Shown piece by piece: positions 14,018 through 25,911 of a DNA stretch of 64,000 nt. The DNA lies in assembly GCF_008634025.1 (NCBI RefSeq), contig NZ_PDCM01000002.1, forward strand, positions 3,683,001 through 3,747,000, written 5' to 3'. The stretch comes from Streptomyces albofaciens JCM 4342 (GTDB lineage Bacteria > Actinomycetota > Actinomycetes > Streptomycetales > Streptomycetaceae). The notes under the pieces are model-generated. The model had not been told where the DNA came from, did no database searches, and saw nothing but the letters and a program-made list of their open reading frames with translations. Numbering within the stretch: position 1 is the stretch's first letter; every line of letters starts with the position of its first letter. Position numbers and translations under genes: made by a program.

Positions 14018-15019
14018 GTGACCACTTCGACCACCGCCCGGGTGCTCGCCCTGCTGGAGATCCTCCAGGGCGGCGGCATCCGTACCGTTCCCGAGCTGGC
14101 CACCCGCCTCGGCGTCGACGAGCGCACCGTCCGCCGCTATGTCGGCCACCTGCTGGACCTGGACATCCCCGTCGACGCGGTGCGGGGCCGCTACGGCGGC
14201 TACCGGCTCGCCCCCGGCTACCGGATGCCCCCGCTGATGCTCACCGACGAGGAGGCATTGGCCGTACTGCTGGGCCTGCTCGCGGGACAGCGCGGCGGGC
14301 CGGGCGCCGTCTCGGCGGCGGCCGGTGAGAGCGCGGCGGCGAAGGTGCGGCGGGTGCTGCCGGTGGCCCTGCGGCGGCGGCTGGAAGCGCTGCTGGAGAC
14401 GGCCGACTTCACCGACCGGCCCCGTCCCGCCGCCCCGCCGGAGGCGGCGGTGCTGCTCGAACTCGCCGAGGCCGTGCGCCGGCGGCGGCCGGTGGCGTTC
14501 GCGTACACCGACCGCGAGGGCCGCGGCAGTGCCCGTACGGTCCTGCCGTACGGGCTCGTGGCGCACTCCGGGCGGTGGTACCTGACCGGGGCCGGCCGGG
14601 ACGGCGGGGAGATGCGGATCTTCCGGCTGGACCGGATCGCCTCGGTGCGCGTGCTGTCCGGTTCGTTCGACGTCCCGGACGGTTTCGACCCGGCGGCGAC
14701 CGTCCTCGGCCATCTCGCGCGGACGCCGTGGAAACACGACGTGTCGCTGCGCGTCCGCGGCAGCGTCGAGCACCTGCGCGGGCACCTCCCGGCCGGGATC
14801 GCCGCCCTGTCCGACGACGGGCCCGACTGGGTCCGCGTCCGCATCCGGGCCGAGCGGCTGGAGTGGATCCCGCCCGTACTGGCGGCGCTGGACCGCCCGT
14901 TCGTCATCGAGCGCCCGGCGGCCCTGCGCGACCTTGTCCGCGCGCTGGCCGGCCGCCTCGGCTCGTACGCGGACACCGACGCCGACACCGACCCCGACAC
15001 CGACGACCACCCCCGCTGA
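14018..15019 (+). CDS. WYL-domain transcriptional regulator
   Basis: A 333-residue DeoR/YafY-like regulator. The N-terminal winged helix RVLALLEILQGGGIRTVPELA with VDERTVRRYVGHL (residues 6-50) is followed by GRYGGYRLAPGYRMPPLMLT and a WYL domain (about 145-230) with HSGRWYLTGAGRDG. WYL domains sense ligands and often repress an adjacent divergent enzyme gene, here the VOC protein. GTG 14018 has a possible -10 (CAGACT) only 6 nt upstream and no ribosome site, so the mRNA is probably leaderless. The C-terminus ends in an Asp/Thr repeat tail (DTDADTDPDTDD). Confidence 0.88.
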   Translation: MTTSTTARVLALLEILQGGGIRTVPELATRLGVDERTVRRYVGHLLDLDIPVDAVRGRYGGYRLAPGYRMPPLMLTDEEALAVLLGLLAGQRGGPGAVSAAAGESAAAKVRRVLPVALRRRLEALLETADFTDRPRPAAPPEAAVLLELAEAVRRRRPVAFAYTDREGRGSARTVLPYGLVAHSGRWYLTGAGRDGGEMRIFRLDRIASVRVLSGSFDVPDGFDPAATVLGHLARTPWKHDVSLRVRGSVEHLRGHLPAGIAALSDDGPDWVRVRIRAERLEWIPPVLAALDRPFVIERPAALRDLVRALAGRLGSYADTDADTDPDTDDHPR

Positions 15020-15025
15020 CCCCCT

Positions 15026-15652
15026 TCACCCCCCGTTCAGCACGGTGTCCAGGATCCGCGCCCACTGCGTCACCACCCGCCGCCTGCGGGCCGTGTCGTC
15101 GGTGAGGAGCGTGGCGAGACCGAGGCCCCGGGACATGTCGAGCAGCCCCTGTACGGTCTCGCGGACGCCGGGGACCGACTCGTCGGCGCCCAGGAGGGCG
15201 ACCGCCGTGCGGTGCGCCTCGCGGCCCACCCGGGCCTCCAGGGCGGTGACCCGGTCGCGCAGCGGCTCCTCGTCGGAGGCGGCCACCCACAGGTGGAGGG
15301 CGGCGCGGAAGAGGGGGCCCGTATAGAGGCCGACGATCTCCTCGACGACGATACGGGTGCGGGCCGGCGATCCGGTGGGCGGCAGGTCGTTCGCCACCGC
15401 CTTGAGCGCGCTCTGCCGCATTTCCGCGACGTGCTCGACGGCGGCCGTGAACAGGTCCTCGCGCGTGCGGAAGTGGTGCTGGGCGGCCCCCCGCGAGACG
15501 CCCGCGCGCTCCGCGACGACGGAGACCGTACTGCCGCTCCAGCCGTGCTCGGCGAGGCAGGAGACTGCCGCTTCCAGCAGGGCGCGGCGGGTGGCGCGGC
15601 TGCGTTCCTGCTGGGGTTCCTTGGCGGCGCGGGAGGAGGTCACCGTGCCCAT
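15026..15652 (-). CDS. TetR-family regulator of the CoA catabolic locus
   Basis: A 208-residue TetR protein. The N-terminal helix-turn-helix is RRALLEAAVSCLAEHGW through SRGAAQHHFRTREDLF (residues 22-68), and the C-terminal helical ligand domain is typical in size. Its start overlaps the end of the crotonase gene by 13 bp on the same strand, so it is the last gene of the leftward locus and probably its repressor. The likely inducer is a pathway acyl-CoA or acid, by analogy with other catabolic TetR proteins. Confidence 0.88.
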   Translation of the reverse strand: MGTVTSSRAAKEPQQERSRATRRALLEAAVSCLAEHGWSGSTVSVVAERAGVSRGAAQHHFRTREDLFTAAVEHVAEMRQSALKAVANDLPPTGSPARTRIVVEEIVGLYTGPLFRAALHLWVAASDEEPLRDRVTALEARVGREAHRTAVALLGADESVPGVRETVQGLLDMSRGLGLATLLTDDTARRRRVVTQWARILDTVLNGG

Positions 15653-16485
15653 GACGGTTCCCGGCGCTGGAGGAAGGCGGTCATGCCCTCGCGGGCCTCT
15701 TCGGAGGCGAAGAGGCGGGCGGAGGTCTCGGCGAGGGCCGCGGTGTCGCGGTCGAAGGTCCGCAGGACTTCGGCGGTGACCAGGGCCTTGGACTCCGCCA
15801 GGCCTTGCGGGGAGCCCTTGCGCAGCCCGGCCAGTACCGGTGCGAGGGCGGCGTCGGGGTCGTCGGCGGCCAGCGTCACCAGGCCGGTGCGGGCCGCTTC
15901 GGCGGCGTCGAAGCGTTCGCCGGTGAGGTAGTAGCGGGCGGCGGCCCGCGGGTCCATACGGGGCAGCAGCGGCATGGAGATGACGGCGGGGGCGAGGCCG
16001 AGGCGGGCCTCGGTGAAGGCGAAGGTGGCGCCGGGTCCCGCCACCGACACGTCACAGGCGCCGAGGAGGCCGAGGCCGCCCGCGCGGACGTGGCCGGTGA
16101 CCTTGGCGACGACGGGCTTGGGCAGTTCGATGATCGTCCGCAGCAGACGGGCCAGACCGAGCGGGCCGGCGGCCGCGGTCCCGGCCCCGTCCGTCGCGTC
16201 CGTGGCCTCCGTGGCCTCCGTGGCCTCCGTGGCCTCCGTGGCCTCCGTGGCCTCCGTCAGGTCCGCTCCCGCGCAGAACGTCGTCCCGGTGTGGGTGAGC
16301 AGCACGGCGCGCGTCCCGGCGGACCCGGCCGCCGCCGCCAGCGCCGCGTGGAGCTCGCCCACCAGGCGCCGGGAGAGCGCGTTGCGGTTGTGCGGGGAGT
16401 CGAGGGTGAGGACGGTGACGCCCCGGTCGTGGGCGTGCCGTACCAGCGGTCCGTCCGGAGTGGCGTCCGGTGTGGCGTCGGTCAT
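15640..16485 (-). CDS. Enoyl-CoA hydratase/isomerase family (crotonase) with repeat insert
   Basis: A 281-residue crotonase-fold protein. LTHTGTTFCAGADL supplies the first oxyanion-hole amide, and GHVRAGGLGLLGACDVSVA supplies the second. In the second segment the position equivalent to catalytic Glu144 of rat hydratase appears to be glycine, while the Glu164 equivalent seems kept in AFTEARLGLAP. This pattern occurs in hydroxycinnamoyl-CoA hydratase-lyases and other specialised crotonases. After the oxyanion segment there is an inserted (Glu-Ala-Thr)n stretch encoded by a 9-bp repeat, in a loop that is normally variable. It overlaps the ligase gene (ATGA) upstream and the TetR gene downstream. 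Confidence 0.87.
   Translation of the reverse strand: MTDATPDATPDGPLVRHAHDRGVTVLTLDSPHNRNALSRRLVGELHAALAAAAGSAGTRAVLLTHTGTTFCAGADLTEATEATEATEATEATEATDATDGAGTAAAGPLGLARLLRTIIELPKPVVAKVTGHVRAGGLGLLGACDVSVAGPGATFAFTEARLGLAPAVISMPLLPRMDPRAAARYYLTGERFDAAEAARTGLVTLAADDPDAALAPVLAGLRKGSPQGLAESKALVTAEVLRTFDRDTAALAETSARLFASEEAREGMTAFLQRREPSWAR
16202..16255. repeat. 9-bp tandem repeat, six exact copies
   Basis: Six perfect copies of GTGGCCTCC (minus strand GGAGGCCAC) inside the crotonase gene, encoding consecutive Glu-Ala-Thr triplets. Length changes by slippage would stay in frame, so the loop can vary without destroying the protein. Confidence 0.95.
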
Positions 16486-18074
16486 GGGGCCGTGGAACTC
16501 CTTTCCCTGGCGCGCAGTTCGCGCCGCAGGATCTTGCCGGTGGCGGCGCGGGGCACGAGGTCCGTGAACTCCACCCGCCGTACCTTCTTGTACGGGGCGA
16601 CCTGCCCGGCAACGTACGCGATGACCTCCTCCTCGGTGAGCCGGGCCCCCGCCTCGCCGCGCCGCCGGACGACGTACGCCTTGGGGACCTCGTTGCCGTC
16701 CGCGTCGGTGACGCCGATCACCGCGGCGTCCGCGATGCCCTCGTGGGCGAGCAGCACCGCTTCGAGGTCGGCCGGGGCGACCTGGTAGCCCTTGTATTTG
16801 ATCAGCTCTTTGACGCGGTCGACGACGTGCAGCCAGCCGTCCGCGTCCACCCGCCCGATGTCGCCGGTGTGCAGCCAGCCGTCCGCGTCGATCATCGCGT
16901 CGGTCTCGGCGGGGCGCCCCAGGTAGCCCTTCATGACCTGCGGGCCGCGGATCAGGATCTCGCCGCTCTCGCCGGTCCCGAGGTCCTTGTCGGTGTCCAG
17001 GCAGCGGATGCGCATCTCGGTGCCGGGCAGCAGCTTGCCGACGGTGCCGGGCGGCGCGTCGGTGGCGCCCAGCGGTACGACGTGGGAGCCGGGCGACAGT
17101 TCGGTCATGCCGTACGCCTGCATGACGGGCGGGATGCCCAGGCGCCGGGCGCAGGCGTCGGCGAGCCGGGCGTCGAGCGGGGCGGCGGCGCTGACGAGGT
17201 AGTCGAGCGAGGACAGGTCGTACTGGGTGACGGCCGGGTGCTTGGCGAGGGCCAGGACGATGGGCGGGGCCACGTACACCGCGTTGATCCGGTACTTCTC
17301 GATGGTGCGCAGGAAGTGTTCGAGGTCGAAGCGGGGCAGCACGACGACGGTGGAGCCGTTGCGCAGCGGGGAGTTCATCAGGGCGGTCAGGCCGTAGATG
17401 TGGAAGAAGGGCAGTACGGCCAGCACGCGGTCGCCGGGGCCGCTGCCGATCAGCCGGTTGAGCTGGGCGAGATTGGTGGCGATGTTGCGGTGGGTGAGCA
17501 TCACGCCCTTGGGGCTGCCGGTGGTGCCGGAGGAGTACGGCAGCACGGCCACGTCCCGGGCTGGGTCGATGGTGACGGCCGGTTCGGGCGCGGTGGAGGC
17601 GATCATGTCGCGTACGGAGCGGTGGCCCATGGCGCCGTCGCAGACGAACACCTCGGTGATGCCGCCCGCCTGCTCGGCGGCGCTGCGCGCGGTCTCCAGC
17701 AGCGGGGCGACGGTGACGATCCAGTTGGCGCCGGAGTCCCGCAGCTGCTGGGCGAACTCCCCCGACGTGGCCAGGGGGTGCACGGTGGTGACGGCGGCGC
17801 CGCAGCGCGAGGCGGCGTAGCAGACGGCCGGGTAGGCGATGGTGTTGGGACTGTGCAGCGCGAGCACGTCGCCGGGGCGGACGCCCGCGTCGGCCAGGGC
17901 CGCGGCGATCCGGCGGCTGGCGCCGTCGAGTTCGGCGTAGCTGAGCGTGGTGCCGTCCTGGCCGTCGATCAGCGCGGGCAGGGCGGCGTGCTCGGTGGCC
18001 GACCGGCCCAGAACGGCTTCGTGGATCGGCAGGTCGACGGGCGCGACATCGGCGTACTGACTGTGAAAGACCAT
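16482..18074 (-). CDS. 4-coumarate/cinnamate-CoA-ligase-like AMP-binding enzyme
   Basis: A 530-residue adenylate-forming ligase that activates a carboxylic acid to its CoA thioester. The AMP-binding motif LPYSSGTTGSPKGV is at about 179-191 and YGMTELSPG at about 321. The 4CL box II motif GEILIRGP is near 381, and the catalytic lysine is in PRAATGKILRREL (about 514). This architecture fits 4-coumarate:CoA ligases; S. coelicolor has a characterised cinnamate:CoA ligase of this type, which I recall lies in a similar gene context. ATG 18074 is preferred over 18080 because GAGGGG is correctly spaced for it. Its stop overlaps the crotonase start. Confidence 0.88.
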   Translation of the reverse strand: MVFHSQYADVAPVDLPIHEAVLGRSATEHAALPALIDGQDGTTLSYAELDGASRRIAAALADAGVRPGDVLALHSPNTIAYPAVCYAASRCGAAVTTVHPLATSGEFAQQLRDSGANWIVTVAPLLETARSAAEQAGGITEVFVCDGAMGHRSVRDMIASTAPEPAVTIDPARDVAVLPYSSGTTGSPKGVMLTHRNIATNLAQLNRLIGSGPGDRVLAVLPFFHIYGLTALMNSPLRNGSTVVVLPRFDLEHFLRTIEKYRINAVYVAPPIVLALAKHPAVTQYDLSSLDYLVSAAAPLDARLADACARRLGIPPVMQAYGMTELSPGSHVVPLGATDAPPGTVGKLLPGTEMRIRCLDTDKDLGTGESGEILIRGPQVMKGYLGRPAETDAMIDADGWLHTGDIGRVDADGWLHVVDRVKELIKYKGYQVAPADLEAVLLAHEGIADAAVIGVTDADGNEVPKAYVVRRRGEAGARLTEEEVIAYVAGQVAPYKKVRRVEFTDLVPRAATGKILRRELRARERSSTAP

Positions 18075-18216
18075 GGCCATCCCCTCAGCAGCGGCGCGCG
18101 CCCGGTGCCGGTACGGGCCGCGGGCGGGCGCCTGTCCGTGTGCGTGCAGCATCGCGGTTGCCGGTGCGGTTGTCAGCACGGCGACCGCGATGCCGCGCAC
18201 GGCCGGACACGGGTCC

Positions 18217-19416
18217 TCAGTACGACTTGGGGAGCCCGAGGCTCTGGTGGGAGACGTAGTTGAGGATCATCTCCCGGCTGACCGGGGCGATCCGCGCGAC
18301 GCGGGCCGCGGTGATCAGGGAGGCGAGGCCGTACTCGTGGGTCAGGCCGTTGCCGCCGAGGGTGTGCACCGCCTGGTCCACGGCCTTGACCGCCGCTTCG
18401 GCCGCCGCGTACTTGGCCATGTTGGCGGCCTCGCCCGCGCCCATGTCGTCGCCCGCGTCGTAGAGGTGGGCGGCCTTCTGCATCATCAGGCGGGCGAGTT
18501 CCAGCTCGATGTGCACCTGGGCGAGGGGGTGGGCGATGGCCTGGTGGGCGCCGATGGGCGCCTTCCAGACCTGGCGGGTCCGGGCGTAGTCGACGGCCCG
18601 CTCGACCGCGTACCGGCCCATGCCGAGGGCGAAGGCGGCGGTCATGATGCGTTCGGGGTTGAGCCCGGCGAAGAGCTGGAGCAGCCCGGCGTCCTCTCCC
18701 CCATGGCCTTCGGCCTGGGAGGCACCCCCGCCCACCAGCGCGTCCGCGGGCAGCCGTACATCGTCCAGCGTCAGCTCGAACTGCTTCTCCGGCGCGCCCA
18801 GCTCCATGGCTATCCGGCTGCGCCCGAACCCGGCGGCGTCGCGGGGCACGATGAACAGGCACGGCTTGAGCCTGCCGGTACGGGCGTCCTCCGTCCGGCC
18901 GACGATCAGCGTGGCCTCGGCGATGTCCACACCCGAGATGAAGACCTTGCGGCCGTTGAGGACCCACTCGCCGGTGGCCGGGTCGCGGCGGGCCGTGGTG
19001 GTGATGCGGTGGGAGTTGGAGCCGGCGTCCGGTTCGGTGATGCCGAAGGCCATCTTGCGGGTGCCGTCGGCGAGGCCGGGCAGCCAGGCGCGCTTCTGCT
19101 CCTCGGTGCCGAAGCGGGCGATGACGGTGCCGCAGATGGCGGGCGAGACGACGAGCATGAGCAGCGGGCAGCCTGCCGCGCCCAGTTCTTCCAGCACGAT
19201 GGAGAGTTCGGCGATGCCGCCGCCTCCGCCGCCGTACTCCTCGGGGAGGTTCACGCCGAGGTAGCCCAGTTTGGCGGCCTCCGCCCACAGTTCGTCGGTG
19301 TGCTTGCCCTCGGCCACGACGCGGGCGAAGTACTCGCGTCCGTAGCGCTTGCCGAGCGCGGCGACGGACGCGCGGAGGGCGCGGTGTTCCTCGGTTTCGA
19401 TCACGGGGGTGCTCAC
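18217..19416 (-). CDS. Acyl-CoA dehydrogenase
   Basis: A 399-residue FAD acyl-CoA dehydrogenase that would oxidise an acyl-CoA to the enoyl-CoA. The family blocks are in order: LGYLGVNLPEEYGGGGGG (about 50-67), KMAFGITEPDAGSNSH, WVLNGRKVFISG, NPERIMTAAFALGMGR, and the C-terminal HTLGGNGLTHEYGLASLI. The usual catalytic glutamate positions are not obvious, so the substrate class is uncertain. GTG 19416 follows GAAGGAG. It starts 26 bp after the biotin carboxylase stop. The next 142 bp to the ligase gene hold nothing obvious. Confidence 0.88.
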   Translation of the reverse strand: MSTPVIETEEHRALRASVAALGKRYGREYFARVVAEGKHTDELWAEAAKLGYLGVNLPEEYGGGGGGIAELSIVLEELGAAGCPLLMLVVSPAICGTVIARFGTEEQKRAWLPGLADGTRKMAFGITEPDAGSNSHRITTTARRDPATGEWVLNGRKVFISGVDIAEATLIVGRTEDARTGRLKPCLFIVPRDAAGFGRSRIAMELGAPEKQFELTLDDVRLPADALVGGGASQAEGHGGEDAGLLQLFAGLNPERIMTAAFALGMGRYAVERAVDYARTRQVWKAPIGAHQAIAHPLAQVHIELELARLMMQKAAHLYDAGDDMGAGEAANMAKYAAAEAAVKAVDQAVHTLGGNGLTHEYGLASLITAARVARIAPVSREMILNYVSHQSLGLPKSY

Positions 19417-19442
19417 GGGGACTCCTTCGAGGGGGAGCGCCG

Positions 19443-21341
19443 TCATACGGTGACGACGGCCAGCGGCGTGCCGACCTCGACCTGCTGACCGGCCTTGACG
19501 TGCAGGGCGGTCAGCGTGCCGGAGGCGGGTGCGGTGATCTTGTGTTCCATCTTCATGGCTTCGAGCCAGAGCAGCGGGGCACCGGCCGCCACCCGGTCGC
19601 CCTCGGCCAGGCCGTCCGCCACGCGTACGACGGTGCCGGGCATGGGGGCGAGCAGCGAGCCGGGTTCGGTGCGCGCGGCGGGGTCGGGGAAGCGGGGCAG
19701 GGCGGTGAGGGTGCGGGACCCGGCGGCGGAGTCGACGTACACCTGGTCGCCGTGGCGGGCGACGGTGAACTCGCGTCGTACACCGTCCGCTTCGAGGACG
19801 ACTCGGCCCGGGGCGGACTGAAGGAGCCGTACGCCGGGGAAGTCCTCGGCGCGCAGCCCGTCGCGGCCCAGCCGGTAGCGGATCGCGTGCTCGGTGCCGC
19901 CGCAGGCGTACGTCTTGGTCTGCGGCTGCGACGGCACGTTGCGGAAGCCGCCGAAGCGGGACCGGCCGTGCGCGTCGGCGAGGGCGGCGGCCAGCGCGCA
20001 CAGGCCGGTGACCGTGGCGTCGGGGGCGGGCGCGAGGGCGTCCAGGTTGCGGTCGTAGAAGCCGGTGTCCAGGCCGGTGGCGGTGGCGAACTCGGGGTGG
20101 CGCAGGGACCGTACGAGCAGGTCGCGGTTGGTGACCGGGCCGTGCACGCGGGCCCGTTCCAGCGCGCCCGCCAGCTTGCGCACGGCCTCGGCGCGGCCCG
20201 GCGCCCAGGCGATGACCTTGGCGAGCATCGGGTCGTAGTGGACGCCGACGACCGTCCCGTCGGCCACGCCCGAGTCGAGCCGGACGCCGTCGGGCACGGA
20301 CAGGTGGTGCAGCGTGCCGGTCTGCGGCTGCCAGCCCGCCGCCGGGTCCTCCGCGTACAGCCGGGCCTCTACGGCGTGGCCGCGCGGCGCGGGCGGTTCC
20401 TCCGCCAGCGCCTCCCCCTCGGCCACCCGCAATTGCAGGGCCACAAGATCGACGCCGTACACCGCCTCGGTGACCGGGTGCTCGACCTGGAGGCGGGTGT
20501 TCATCTCCAGGAAGTGGGCGTGGCCGGTGGCGGAGACGAGGAATTCGACGGTGCCCGCGCCGCGGTAGCCGATGGTGCGGGCGGCGTCGGCGGCGGCCGT
20601 GTGCAGGGTGGCGCGCAGTTCGTCGGGGAGTCCCGGCGCGGGTGCTTCCTCGATGACCTTCTGGTGGCGGCGCTGGAGGGAGCAGTCGCGGGTGCCGAGG
20701 GTCCAGACGGTGCCGTGTGCGTCGGCGAGGACCTGCACCTCGACGTGCCGGCCACCGATCACGTACGGCTCGGCGAAGACCTCGCCGTCCCCGAACGCCG
20801 CCGCGGCCTCGGCCCGCGCCGCCGCCAGCTCCCCCGGCAGGTCCGCCAGGTCCCGTACGACACGCATGCCGCGCCCGCCGCCGCCCGCCGCCGCCTTCAC
20901 CAGCAGCGGCAGGTCGGCGGCGGTGGCGTGCGCCGGATCGACGGGGGCGAGCAGCGGCACCCCGGCCGCCGCCATCAGCTCCTTGGCGCGCGTCTTGGAG
21001 GCCATCGCCTCGATGGCGGCGGGCGGCGGGCCGACCCAGGCCAGGCCGGCGTCGGCGACGGCCGCGGCGAATCCGGCGTTCTCGGAGAGGAAGCCGTAAC
21101 CGGGGTGGACGGCGTCGGCCCCGGCGGCGTGCGCGGCCTTCACGACCAGGTCGCCGCGCAGGTAGGTGTCGGCCGGGGCGCTGCCCGGGAGGCGTACGGC
21201 GGCGTCGGCCTCCCGGACGTGCGGCGCGTCGGCGTCCGCGTCGGAGTACACGGCCACCGTGGCGATGCCCAGCTCCCGGCAGGTGCGGAAGATCCGGCGG
21301 GCGATCTCGCCACGGTTGGCGACGAGGAGGGAAGAGATCAC
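19443..21341 (-). CDS. Acyl-CoA carboxylase biotin carboxylase/BCCP subunit
   Basis: A 632-residue protein joining biotin carboxylase and biotin carboxyl carrier domains. ISSLLVANRGEIARRIFRT begins the carboxylase domain. Next come the ATP-grasp glycine loop KAAAGGGGRGMRVV, CSLQRRHQKVIEEAPAP and FLEMNTRLQVEHPVTE. The C-terminal EAMKMEH carries the biotinylated lysine at about residue 597. The size and fusion are those of 3-methylcrotonyl-, geranyl- or propionyl-CoA carboxylase alpha chains. GTG 21341 is preceded by GAGGAA and starts 7 nt after the carboxyltransferase stop. Confidence 0.93.
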   Translation of the reverse strand: MISSLLVANRGEIARRIFRTCRELGIATVAVYSDADADAPHVREADAAVRLPGSAPADTYLRGDLVVKAAHAAGADAVHPGYGFLSENAGFAAAVADAGLAWVGPPPAAIEAMASKTRAKELMAAAGVPLLAPVDPAHATAADLPLLVKAAAGGGGRGMRVVRDLADLPGELAAARAEAAAAFGDGEVFAEPYVIGGRHVEVQVLADAHGTVWTLGTRDCSLQRRHQKVIEEAPAPGLPDELRATLHTAAADAARTIGYRGAGTVEFLVSATGHAHFLEMNTRLQVEHPVTEAVYGVDLVALQLRVAEGEALAEEPPAPRGHAVEARLYAEDPAAGWQPQTGTLHHLSVPDGVRLDSGVADGTVVGVHYDPMLAKVIAWAPGRAEAVRKLAGALERARVHGPVTNRDLLVRSLRHPEFATATGLDTGFYDRNLDALAPAPDATVTGLCALAAALADAHGRSRFGGFRNVPSQPQTKTYACGGTEHAIRYRLGRDGLRAEDFPGVRLLQSAPGRVVLEADGVRREFTVARHGDQVYVDSAAGSRTLTALPRFPDPAARTEPGSLLAPMPGTVVRVADGLAEGDRVAAGAPLLWLEAMKMEHKITAPASGTLTALHVKAGQQVEVGTPLAVVTV

Positions 21342-21348
21342 GGGTTCC

Positions 21349-22943
<1,595 letters not shown>

Positions 22944-22947
<4 letters not shown>

Positions 22948-24668
22948 CGCAGTACCTCCGGTATGTCCAGGTGGCGGGCGCGCAGCCACTCCCCCACGGC
23001 CTTGGCCTGCGGGTCGAAGCGGGCCTGCGCGGCGACGCCCGCGCCGAGCAGGCCGTCGATCACGAAGTTGAGGGCGCGCAGATTGGGCAGGACGTGGCGG
23101 GTGACGGGCAGGTCCGCGGTCTCGGGGAGCAGTTCGCGCAGCCGGTCGGCGGTCAGTTCGTGGGCCAGCCAGCGCCAGGCCGCTTCCGTACGGGCCCAGA
23201 CGCCGACGTTGGCCGAGCCGCCCTTGTCGCCGCTGCGGGCCCCGGCCACCAGGCCGAGCGGGGCGCGGCGGGTCCGGCCGTCGTGGGCGAGGGGTACGGG
23301 GAGAGGCGGCTCGGTGAGCGGTGCCGGTTCGCGGGTTTCCGCCGGTGGCGGCACCGGGCTGCGGCTGCCGTCCGGGAGTACGGCGGTGTGCGGTACGTCC
23401 GCCGCGGCCACGTACTCCGCCTCGAAGACCCCGTACGGCTCGCCCTTGCCCGGCGGCGCCGTCACGTGGAAGCCGGGGATGCTCCCCAGCGCCAGTTCGA
23501 CGGCGGCCCCGCTCACCACCCGGCCCACCGCGTCCTGGTCGGCGTCCCGCACCACCAGCCGCAGCAGGGCGCTCGCCTCCTCCTGGACGGCGGCGTCCGG
23601 GTGGTCGGTGCGGGCCAGCGTCCATTCCACGGATGCCGGACGGCGTTCGGCCGCGTCGAAGGCCGCTTCCATCTGGTCCCGTACTAGGGCGGCCTTGGCC
23701 TCGATGTCGAGGCCGGTCAGCACGAACGTGACCGCGTTGCGCCAGCCGCCCAGGCGGGTCAGGCCCACCTTCAGCACCGGCGGCGGCGCCTCGCCGCGTA
23801 CGCCGTCGACGCGCACCCGGTCGGCGCCGTCCTGGGTCAGCCGTACGGTGTCCAGGCGCGCCGTCACGTCCGGCCCCGGATACCGCGCGCCGGCCGTCTC
23901 GTACAGCAGCTGCGCGGTGACCGTGCCGACGGTCACCGCGCCGCCCGTGCCCGGGTGCTTGGTGATCACCGAGGAGCCGTCGGCGGCGATCTCGGCGAGC
24001 GGGAAGCCGGGACGGCGCAGGTCGTGGGCGGCGGGGAAGTCCCGGTCGGCGAAGAAGGAGTAGTTGCCGCCGGTCGCCTGGGTGCCGCACTCCAGGACAT
24101 GGCCCGCGACGACCGCGCCCGCCAGCCGGTCGTGGTCCGTGGGCGCCCAGCCGAAGTGGGCCGCCGCGGCCCCGCTGACCAGCGCGGCGTCCGTGACCCG
24201 GCCGGTCACCACCACATCGGCGCCGGCGCGCAGGCAGGCGGCGATGCCCGCGCCGCCCAGGTAGGCGTTGGCGGTCAGCACGCCCTGGCGCCCGCCGTAG
24301 CGGGCCATGAGGTCGTCGCCCTCCACATACGCCACCCGCGCCGGGACGCCGACCCGGCCGGCCAGCTCTTCCACGGCCTCCGCGAGCCCGGCGGGGTTCA
24401 GTCCCCCCGCGTTGGCGACGATCCGCACCCCCCGCTCGACGGCCGTCCCCAGGCTCTCCTCCAGCTGCCGCAGGAACGTCTTCGCATAGCCGCGCGCGGG
24501 ATCCTTCAGCCGGTCGCGGCCCAGGATCAACATGGTCAGCTCGGCCAGGTAATCGCCGGTCAGGACGTCGAGCGGGCCGCCGGTGAGCATCTCGCGCACG
24601 GCGTCGAAGCGGTCGCCGTAGAAGCCGGAGGCGTTGCCGACGCGCAGCACACCCCCGCCGCCGGTCAC
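22944..24668 (-). CDS. AtuA-like acyclic terpene utilisation protein (DUF1446)
   Basis: A 574-residue protein of the AtuA/DUF1446 family. RVGNASGFYGDRFDAVREML is at the start, followed by VRIVANAGGLNPAGLAEAV, VVVTGRVTDAALVSG, HVLECGTQATGGNYSFF, and the C-terminal LGLVAGARSGDKGGSANVGVW. In Pseudomonas atuA is the first gene of the citronellol/geraniol catabolic cluster beside geranyl-CoA carboxylase, but its biochemical role is unknown. Here too it is immediately upstream of a carboxyltransferase. GTG 24668 overlaps the preceding stop; GTG 24650 is an alternative. Confidence 0.87.
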
Positions 24669-25471
24669 CGGGCGCCCTTCCGCGCGCCCCCGCCCGGCTT
24701 CCGGCCCGTGCCGGGCGGCCCGGCGAACGCCTGGGCGATGTCCAGCCAGCGGTCCGCGTCCGCGCCCTCGGCCCGTACGTCCACGTCGTCGCGGTGCGCG
24801 CGCTGCGTGACCAGCAGGCAGAAGCCGAGGGCGTCGCCGGTCACCCGCTGCGCCGCGTCCTCCGGCCCGTACGTCCAGGTGCCGCCGCCGGGGGCACGCA
24901 GCTCGACGTGGAACTCCTCGGCCGGGGCCGCCAGTCCGTTGGCCGCGAACGCGAAGTCCCGCGCGCGCACGCCGATACGGGCCACATGCCGCAACCGCGC
25001 CGTGGGCTCGCGCCGTACGCCCAGCGTGTCGGCGATGTCCTGGCCGTGCGCCCAGGTCTCCATCAGCCGCCCCGTGGCCATGGATGCGGTGCTCATCGAG
25101 GTCGCGAACCACGGCATCTTGTCCCGGGCGGTACGGGTGGCCAGGGCCTCGTGCAGCTCGGTCCGGACCGCCCGCCAGCGCGCGAGCAGCTCCTCGGGCG
25201 GCGCCTGTGCCTCGCGCCGCGCGCCCTCGTCGACGAAGGTTTCGGGAGAGGCCAGGGCCCGCTCCGCCGCTTCCCGGAAGGCGGCGGGGTCGGTGGCGGA
25301 CAGCAGGGCCTGCCGGTCGGTCCAGGCCAGATGCCCGATCTGGTGGGCGATCGTCCAGCCCGCGGCCGGTGTCGGCTCCGCCCACCGGGCCGGCGCCAGC
25401 CCGCCGACCAGCGCGTCGAGCGCGTCCCCCTCGTCCCTCAGATCCGCCAGTACGGCCTCGGCGTCGGACAC
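24665..25471 (-). CDS. TIGR03084-like metal-binding (DinB/mycothiol isomerase fold) protein
   Basis: A 268-residue protein with the DinB / maleylpyruvate-isomerase-N fold. GWTIAHQIGHLAWTDRQAL carries the first histidine of a probable metal site, TGRLMETWAHGQDIADTLG carries the second pair, and a C-terminal strand domain follows from about residue 165. Actinobacterial proteins of this type (TIGR03084) sit next to AtuA-like genes, as here. Enzymes of this fold often use mycothiol, so a thiol-dependent isomerase or detoxification role is possible but unproven. GTG 25471 follows GAGGGGAG. It is the first gene of the leftward locus. Confidence 0.75.
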   Translation of the reverse strand: MSDAEAVLADLRDEGDALDALVGGLAPARWAEPTPAAGWTIAHQIGHLAWTDRQALLSATDPAAFREAAERALASPETFVDEGARREAQAPPEELLARWRAVRTELHEALATRTARDKMPWFATSMSTASMATGRLMETWAHGQDIADTLGVRREPTARLRHVARIGVRARDFAFAANGLAAPAEEFHVELRAPGGGTWTYGPEDAAQRVTGDALGFCLLVTQRAHRDDVDVRAEGADADRWLDIAQAFAGPPGTGRKPGGGARKGAR

Positions 25472-25911
25472 CCGGCACTCCCCTCGTCGGCCATCTGCCG
25501 TGCGGGCAGGGCGCGTTGACTCATGCGGTGCGGGTATCGAGCGTGACAGCGCCGGGAGAAACAATCAAGCACGCATGCATGATTTTCTACGGGGGCGGCG
25601 GGAAGCGACAGGGGGCGGCGAGGCGGCACACCGGGGTGCGAGGCCAGGGTGGACGGCGGGTCGGGCGGCAGGACATACGGCGGGACACGGAGCAGCCGCG
25701 GCACTGGCGCCGCCACGACACACGATGGCACCCACGTCGGCACCACACGGCGTCAACGTGGCACCACGACGGCACATCCGTACGCCACTCAAGCCTCACC
25801 ACGGCGCCACGGAACAGCAATTTTCCAACAAAGCCGCAGGTCAGGCCCGTATACGCCATCACGCCGCCACCTTGGCTCGCCATGGCGCCATCAATGTGCC
25901 ATGATGGCGTC
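25472..25911. promoter_or_regulatory. Divergent control region rich in GGCGCCA/GATGGCGT dyads
   Basis: These 440 bp separate the catabolic locus from the HicB-like gene and hold no supported ORF. Near the HicB-like start there are repeated dyad elements. ACGCCATCA (25853-25861) and TGATGGCGT (25902-25910) are a perfect 9-bp inverted pair. CATGGCGCCATC (25881-25892) with GATGGCGTCATG (25903-25914) match at 11 of 12 positions. TGGCGCC or CGGCGCCA variants recur at about 25705 and 25802. The right arm includes the ATG of the HicB-like gene. A GCATGCAT-centred dyad at about 25560-25585 may serve the leftward operon. Confidence 0.55.

What the first reader, a model, noticed from the sequence alone, without database searches (positions are those of the whole stretch)
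15026..25471. Eight-gene CoA-thioester catabolic locus with AtuA and a TIGR03084-like protein
TIGR03084-like, AtuA/DUF1446, carboxyltransferase and biotin carboxylase genes overlap or nearly touch, then acyl-CoA dehydrogenase, 4CL-like ligase, crotonase and TetR follow on the same strand. In Pseudomonas atu clusters AtuA and a geranyl-CoA carboxylase handle acyclic terpenes. Here the ligase is of the cinnamate/4-coumarate type and the crotonase lacks one catalytic Glu. The substrate (isoprenoid acid, branched acid or aryl-propenoate) is unresolved, and the roles of AtuA and the DinB-fold protein are unknown. This is the best candidate for an undescribed pathway.
Basis: partly seen in the sequence, partly recalled or inferred. 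Interest (0 to 1): 0.7.

Follow-up and report, generated by a model that had tools for sequence, protein, structure and literature searches.

The report
Actinobacterial Atu-type methyl-branch removal operon
This Streptomyces gene cluster most likely takes apart acids with a blocking methyl branch, such as pieces of terpenes, and it appears to be the counterpart of a mycobacterial operon whose substrate was left an open question.

Summary
The eight genes are real, on one strand and tightly packed. AtuA is in 115 of 121 genomes of the genus; 54 of 69 Streptomyces loci with enough flank carry all eight in order.

Best reading: an Atu-type pathway. A 3-methyl-branched acyl-CoA is dehydrogenated, carboxylated on the branch methyl, hydrated to a tertiary alcohol, then cleaved by AtuA to a 3-oxoacyl-CoA plus a C2 unit.

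The 4CL-type ligase is missing in 12 of the 69 loci, so it is a poor guide to substrate. The core has the same order in mycobacteria, matching the accD2-accA2 operon of unknown substrate. A palindrome, CAAGCRYGCTTG, lies upstream in 72 of 76 Streptomyces loci but not in the two Mycobacterium-type loci tested.

Substrate, TIGR03084's role and AtuA's energetics are inference. No enzyme was assayed.

The parts
24665..25471 (-). TIGR03084 protein (DinB / mycothiol maleylpyruvate isomerase fold), first gene; proposed mycothiol-dependent isomerase
   Evidence: TIGR03084 352 bits, cut-off 248; PF11716; His47, Glu138, His142 kept in 99 of 99 loci (97 distinct sequences)
22944..24668 (-). AtuA family protein (PF07287 residues 8-430 fused to the AtuA ferredoxin-like domain 470-564); proposed tertiary-alcohol C-C lyase
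21349..22947 (-). acyl-CoA carboxylase beta subunit (carboxyltransferase), AccD2-like, with the geranyl-CoA-carboxylase-type pocket signature
   Evidence: PF01039; alignments to 3u9r, 4q0g, 5ikl; motif survey
19443..21341 (-). acyl-CoA carboxylase alpha subunit (biotin carboxylase, MCC-alpha-type BT domain, biotin carrier)
   Evidence: PF00289, PF02786, PF02785, PF21139, PF00364
18217..19416 (-). acyl-CoA dehydrogenase
   Evidence: PF02771, PF02770, PF00441; co-ordinates
16482..18074 (-). 4CL-like AMP-forming CoA ligase (facultative member; start could be 18080)
   Evidence: best solved relatives are 4-coumarate--CoA ligases; absent in 12 of 69 Streptomyces loci
15640..16485 (-). crotonase-fold hydratase, NCBIfam PRK07827 family, AtuE-like in lacking the first catalytic Glu
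   Evidence: alignment to 4zu2
15026..15652 (-). TetR-family regulator (position matches Sco4385)
   Evidence: PF00440; S. coelicolor sco4383 ligase, sco4384 hydratase, sco4385 TetR (PMC12093943, passages)
25563..25584 (-). 22-bp imperfect palindrome AATCATGCATGCGTGCTTGATT, candidate TetR operator about 90 bp upstream of the first gene

Best explanation
The locus is an actinobacterial Atu-type pathway that removes a methyl branch which blocks beta-oxidation. The ligase, or another one where it is missing, makes the CoA ester of a 3-methyl-branched acid, probably isoprenoid. The dehydrogenase makes the 3-methyl-2-enoyl-CoA. The two-subunit biotin carboxylase adds CO2 to the branch methyl, giving a 3-alkylglutaconyl-CoA. 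The crotonase adds water, giving a 3-hydroxy-3-alkylglutaryl-CoA, a tertiary alcohol that cannot be oxidised. AtuA breaks the C-C bond on the free-carboxylate side and releases a 3-oxoacyl-CoA for thiolysis, plus acetate or an activated form of it. TIGR03084 is proposed as a mycothiol-dependent isomerase setting the Z geometry that the carboxylase needs. TetR controls the unit through the palindrome. Shown here: genes, conservation, sequence marks, fold match, palindrome. Inferred: every reaction, the substrate, the role of TIGR03084, TetR binding to the palindrome. The same pathway is proposed for the mycobacterial accD2-accA2 operon.
Against: By overall score the carboxyltransferase is nearer MCC beta (579 bits) than GCC beta (489), so the GCC-like pocket need not mean shared descent with AtuC. 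LiuE, not AtuA, is credited with the lyase step in Pseudomonas by one review (PMC4097962). AtuA has no carboxylase pair nearby in 12 of 40 sampled loci (a few of these contigs are short), so it is not tied to this pathway. Some AtuA-linked carboxyltransferases outside this clade have other segments: insertions in Roseibium and Sulfitobacter and longer inserts in L055, L057, L060; the Rhodococcus plasmid copy L158 has one Gly shifted. The citramalate lyase match is at 18% identity and says nothing about the size of the substrate. TIGR03084 is missing in 2 of 69 loci with enough flank. The palindrome is absent from the two Mycobacterium-type loci L037 and L039. A shared fold and gene context are not activity.
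Confidence: 0.7

Rival explanations
1. Aryl-propenoate catabolism: the 4CL-type ligase activates cinnamate or 4-coumarate and the downstream genes degrade the CoA ester.
For: Best solved relatives of the ligase are 4-coumarate--CoA ligases; a cinnamate:CoA ligase of S. coelicolor, ScCCL, is active on cinnamate in vitro (PMC4719340, passages); that it is SCO4383 is recall.
Against: Ligase missing in 12 of 69 Streptomyces loci that keep the core and absent or unlike 4CL in Mycobacteriaceae-type and Rhodococcus loci. Gamma-carboxylation is impossible on cinnamoyl-CoA (established chemistry).
Confidence: 0.07
2. A second leucine/isovalerate (3-methylcrotonyl-CoA) pathway.
For: Carboxyltransferase scores highest with MCC beta; alpha subunit has the MCC-type BT domain.
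Against: MCC motif absent while a paralogue with the motif and an HMGL-family gene sit together elsewhere in the genome; M. smegmatis without accD2-accA2 grows on isovalerate like wild type (PMC4347857, passages).
Confidence: 0.08
3. A biosynthetic or precursor-supply role: the unit makes branched glutaryl-type or 3-oxoacyl-CoA building blocks rather than catabolising food.
For: Overexpression of sco4385 raised caprazamycin output (PMC12093943, passages); TIGR03084 relatives also occur outside AtuA loci.
Against: Near-universal in the genus and shared with mycobacteria; deletion of sco4385 had no significant effect on antibiotic production.
Confidence: 0.08
4. AtuA is a hydratase, a partner protein or a binding protein, and the lyase step is done by the separate HMG-CoA-lyase-family enzyme.
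For: LiuE is reported to have that activity in Pseudomonas (PMC4097962, passages); an HMGL-family gene lies near the MCC paralogue in this genome.
Against: Fold match to citramalate lyase; ThnQ/ThnS report.
Confidence: 0.12

Closest known systems
Pseudomonas acyclic terpene utilisation (atuABCDEFGH, AtuR)
   Same: AtuA, two-subunit carboxylase with GCC-type signature, hydratase without the first Glu, acyl-CoA dehydrogenase, ligase, TetR regulator (Atu gene roles from PMC4847356 and PMC4097962, passages)
   Different: No AtuB/AtuG dehydrogenase pair in the locus; TIGR03084 added; carboxyltransferase nearer MCC than GCC overall; ligase of 4CL type and facultative
Mycobacterial accD2-accA2 operon (Rv0971c-Rv0976c; echA7, fadE12 or fadE10, accA2, accD2, fadE13)
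   Same: Same families in the same order in Mycobacteriaceae-type genomes; same carboxyltransferase signature
   Different: A second acyl-CoA dehydrogenase in place of the ligase; no palindrome in the two Mycobacterium-type loci tested; substrate unreported (PMC4347857). Rv names from PMC9283954 and recall; the M. tuberculosis sequence was not compared
Leucine/isovalerate (liu) cluster
   Same: Carboxylase pair, dehydrogenase, hydratase logic
   Different: MCC motif, HMG-CoA lyase gene, no AtuA
Citramalate lyase subunit A (PDB 9erq, 9evf)
   Same: Fold over 391 residues; named AtuA family protein
   Different: 18% identity; a C-terminal ferredoxin-like domain is fused here; substrate here expected to be a CoA ester
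ThnQ/ThnS AtuA-like lyase of naphthalene degradation
   Same: Reported cleavage at a tertiary hydroxylated carbon of an acyl-CoA (PMC12016498)
   Different: Two gene products, cyclic substrate; sequences not compared here
Cinnamate:CoA ligase ScCCL of S. coelicolor
   Same: 4CL-like ligase; same position by the published gene numbers if ScCCL is SCO4383 (recall)
   Different: Identity to the window gene not computed

Membership tests
Atu-type pathway | AtuA family protein in one unit with a biotin-dependent carboxylase pair | tested here: met
Atu-type pathway | AtuE-type hydratase lacking the first Glu | tested here: met
Atu-type pathway | growth on citronellate/geranate depends on the genes | not testable with these tools
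   no growth data
Geranyl-CoA carboxylase (GCC) | no three-residue insertion and Gly in place of MCC Phe191 | tested here: met
Geranyl-CoA carboxylase (GCC) | GCC beta is the nearest characterised relative | tested here: not met
   579 bits to MCC beta against 489 to GCC beta; so GCC-like, not filed as GCC
Geranyl-CoA carboxylase (GCC) | activity on geranyl-CoA | not testable with these tools
   no assay
Methylcrotonyl-CoA carboxylase (MCC) | RQDEVFPDREHFGRIF segment with Phe191 | tested here: not met
   motif as given in PMC4347857; alignments and survey
AtuA/citramalate-lyase fold family | PF07287 and PF23544, common fold with 9evf | tested here: met
AtuA/citramalate-lyase fold family | C-C lyase activity, ATP/ADP involvement | not testable with these tools
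   9evf title names ADP and pyruvate
TIGR03084 / mycothiol-dependent isomerase superfamily | model over curated cut-off; metal triad | tested here: met
   (which residues form the triad is recalled from maleylpyruvate isomerase)
TIGR03084 / mycothiol-dependent isomerase superfamily | mycothiol dependence | not testable with these tools
   no assay
4-coumarate/cinnamate CoA ligase | nearest solved relatives are 4CLs | tested here: met
Mycobacterial accD2-accA2 operon type | AtuA - dehydrogenase - CT - BC - dehydrogenase - hydratase order | tested here: inconclusive
   order seen in L037 and L039 (one genus, L037 carboxyltransferase 93% to Mycolicibacterium) and in L040, L042, L045 of the same family; the window shares the families but has a ligase instead of the extra dehydrogenase

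The most novel reading that the evidence does not exclude
A near-universal actinobacterial pathway recycles the cell's own or environmental polyisoprenoids (menaquinone side chains, polyprenols, terpenoid acids) by clipping each methyl branch, using a mycothiol-dependent Z/E isomerase (TIGR03084) to feed the carboxylase and a nucleotide-using AtuA lyase that saves the released C2 unit in activated form; this is what the hypoxia-induced mycobacterial accD2-accA2 operon does.
Probability: 0.15. Interest if true: 0.85.

Novelty: new variant of a known kind. Interest (0 to 1): 0.6.

Why it matters
It gives a concrete substrate class and reaction order for a unit found in 115 of 121 genomes of this genus and shared in its core with mycobacteria. 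The substrate of the mycobacterial AccD2-AccA2 complex was left open in print (PMC4347857), and its operon is reported as 20-300 fold induced in hypoxia and stationary phase (PMC9283954). It also links AtuA, named after terpene use but given different roles by different papers, to a C-C lyase fold, and offers a testable role for TIGR03084 proteins.

Tried and rejected
Cinnamate/4-coumarate as the core substrate: rejected because the ligase is facultative and on chemistry. Leucine: rejected on the MCC motif and the separate paralogue. Sequence search of AtuA alone against the PDB found nothing; the profile and the fold did. A paper search with TIGR03084 and acyl-CoA showed no paper with TIGR03084 among its ten listed rows. 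The Nocardia farcinica record had no gene table in the stretch; its layout was read by tblastn instead. AtuA loci without a carboxylase: ten neighbouring genes from five of the 12 loci were put to Pfam (gene calls): transporter parts in L064 and L065, an SDR in L063, nothing in L048, and in the Streptomyces paralogue L036 a cupin, a CoA-transferase and two dehydratase-fold genes; no single pattern. No tree of the carboxyltransferases was built; only part of the GCC beta sequence was seen. Whether a paper holds both AccD2 and AtuA: none does in the held library (0 papers), which lacks most subscription journals. Kaneko 2003 was not held and is known here through PMC3992019 (passages). The palindrome was expected in mycobacteria and was not found in L037, L038, L039, L044 or the Nocardia locus L157 at up to one mismatch. 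At up to two mismatches the long operator pattern has no more hits in the genome than its reversed control (3 against 3, two of the 3 overlapping at the window site).

Full report
WHAT IS THERE. Eight minus-strand genes between 15026 and 25471 form one compact unit: TIGR03084, AtuA, carboxyltransferase, biotin carboxylase, acyl-CoA dehydrogenase, 4CL-like ligase, crotonase, TetR. Every assignment holds under NCBIfam or Pfam. The genome is a 9.25 Mb assembly of two contigs; near named AtuA relatives are all Streptomyces, among them S. rimosus and Streptomyces sp. CB02923 at 91-92%. The neighbour at 14018-15019 (+) is a WYL regulator and is not part of the unit.

CONSERVATION. AtuA occurs in 115 of 121 genomes of the genus and 102 of 396 genomes drawn from the phylum (E <= 0.001, distant paralogues included). 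Of the 80 named Streptomyces loci kept (the best 80 of 563 confirmed), 69 have enough flank; 54 of the 69 carry all eight genes in order and on one strand, judged by identity thresholds per gene. The ligase is absent from 12 of the 69; in nine of these the dehydrogenase and crotonase matches are 28 to 204 bp apart, in three 1.5 to 4.3 kb of other DNA lies between, without N. Crotonase and TetR are absent in three of the 69 and TIGR03084 in two. TIGR03084 lies directly upstream of AtuA on the same strand in 78 of 117 loci with 1.2 kb of room.

BEYOND THE GENUS. In genomes of one other family (L037, L039, L040, L042, L045) the order is AtuA, a second dehydrogenase, carboxyltransferase, biotin carboxylase, dehydrogenase, crotonase, often TetR, with no ligase match. 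The carboxyltransferase of L037 is up to 93% identical to named Mycolicibacterium proteins, L039 is of the same genus, and named mycobacteria hold AtuA orthologues at about 70%. This is the gene content described for the M. tuberculosis operon Rv0971c-Rv0976c with echA7, accA2, accD2 and fadE13 (PMC9283954, passages); the M. tuberculosis sequence itself was not compared, and the place of each gene within Rv0971c-Rv0976c is partly recall. On a Rhodococcus plasmid the families carboxyltransferase, biotin carboxylase, hydratase, TIGR03084, AtuA, dehydrogenase, ligase, TetR stand together in another order, with a ligase only 30% like the window's and a TetR that gave no match. Of 40 AtuA loci that I picked have a carboxylase pair nearby and 12 do not.

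THE CARBOXYLASE. Jurado and co-workers give two sequence criteria separating GCC from MCC: MCC has Phe191 and three extra residues before it, GCC has Gly162 and none (PMC4673880, passages). The window protein aligns without a gap to GCC 5ikl in this segment and is three residues short of MCC. The genome's nearest paralogue carries VFPDREHFGRIF. The GCC-like segment is in 120 of 120 listed homologues of the L037 protein, where Ehebauer and co-workers noted the divergence of AccD2 and left its substrate open (PMC4347857, passages). Further out it is not universal: Roseibium and Sulfitobacter copies keep an insertion, L055, L057 and L060 have longer inserts, and the Rhodococcus plasmid copy differs. 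Overall score is higher with MCC (579 bits) than with GCC (489 bits), so this is filed as GCC-like, not as GCC.

THE HYDRATASE. The crotonase has Gly where the classical hydratase has its first Glu, and keeps the second; AtuE (4zu2) shows the same in the alignment. Of 101 loci, 99 have Gly and 98 the second Glu (99 distinct sequences).

TIGR03084. His47, Glu138 and His142, which by recall correspond to the metal triad of maleylpyruvate isomerase, are kept in 99 of 99 loci. Its matches on plasmids are actinobacterial in 48 of 49 records, the other being Sphingomonas, as expected for a mycothiol enzyme. The GCC authors infer that the trans isomer does not fit the active site (PMC4673880). A Z/E isomerase role is therefore proposed, as inference only.

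REGULATION. A palindrome with core CAAGCRYGCTTG lies within 300 bp upstream of TIGR03084 (or of AtuA where TIGR03084 gave no usable match) in 72 of 76 named Streptomyces loci at up to one mismatch (55 exact); in 76 equal-length stretches inside AtuA none reaches fewer than three mismatches. The pattern was read from some of the same loci, and the loci are related, so this is a description, not an independent test. In the second set of 28 loci 12 have it: the nine Streptomyces loci and three of the family of L037 (L040, L042, L045); 16 do not. The two loci of the Mycobacterium-type genus, L037 and L039, have no site at up to one mismatch in 18 kb, nor has the Nocardia locus L157, whose best upstream site has two mismatches. 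An 18-base version has one exact site in the genome, at 25560-25577 of the window; at up to two mismatches there are no more hits than in the reversed control. Binding by the TetR protein is not shown; a 23-bp Sco4385 consensus is published but its letters were not in the text seen.

JUDGEMENT. The unit is an Atu-type methyl-branch removal pathway with actinobacterial additions. What is new is the assembly of the evidence: the GCC-like pocket, the AtuE-like hydratase, the lyase fold of AtuA, the upstream palindrome, and the shared layout with the mycobacterial accD2-accA2 operon. No paper in the held library has both AccD2 and AtuA. Substrate and chemistry remain to be tested.

Noticed in passing
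window 16190-16257: A 9-bp tandem repeat (7.6 copies) inside the crotonase gene adds an (ATE)n stretch missing from S. rimosus and three other relatives looked at (five loci, two of them the same S. rimosus contig).
   Followed up: partly
L162 6727-9690; L165 4733-7672: Degradative HMG-CoA reductase, AtuA and a small downstream gene overlap in two haloarchaeal genera, suggesting a mevalonate-degrading unit.
   Followed up: partly
L167 6952-9356: A phosphate acyltransferase gene overlaps AtuA in Rhodococcus gordoniae, hinting at an acyl-phosphate product.
   Followed up: no
L174 4648-7648: Citrate:proton symporter followed by AtuA and a small gene in Mycetohabitans.
   Followed up: no
L036 6394-10379: A second, more distant AtuA in a Streptomyces genome follows a family III CoA-transferase and two dehydratase-fold genes; no carboxylase match in the 18 kb.
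   Followed up: partly
protein P0253: One protein of 924 residues joins carboxyltransferase and acyl-CoA dehydrogenase domains; fusion or assembly error not checked.
   Followed up: no
proteins P0005, P0062, P0159 and others: Several AtuA proteins carry the source name exopolyphosphatase, which nothing here supports.
   Followed up: no
phage records CAKLQH020000054.1, CAKLQF020000033.1: Two Acinetobacter phage records hold a DUF1446 gene, perhaps host DNA.
   Followed up: no
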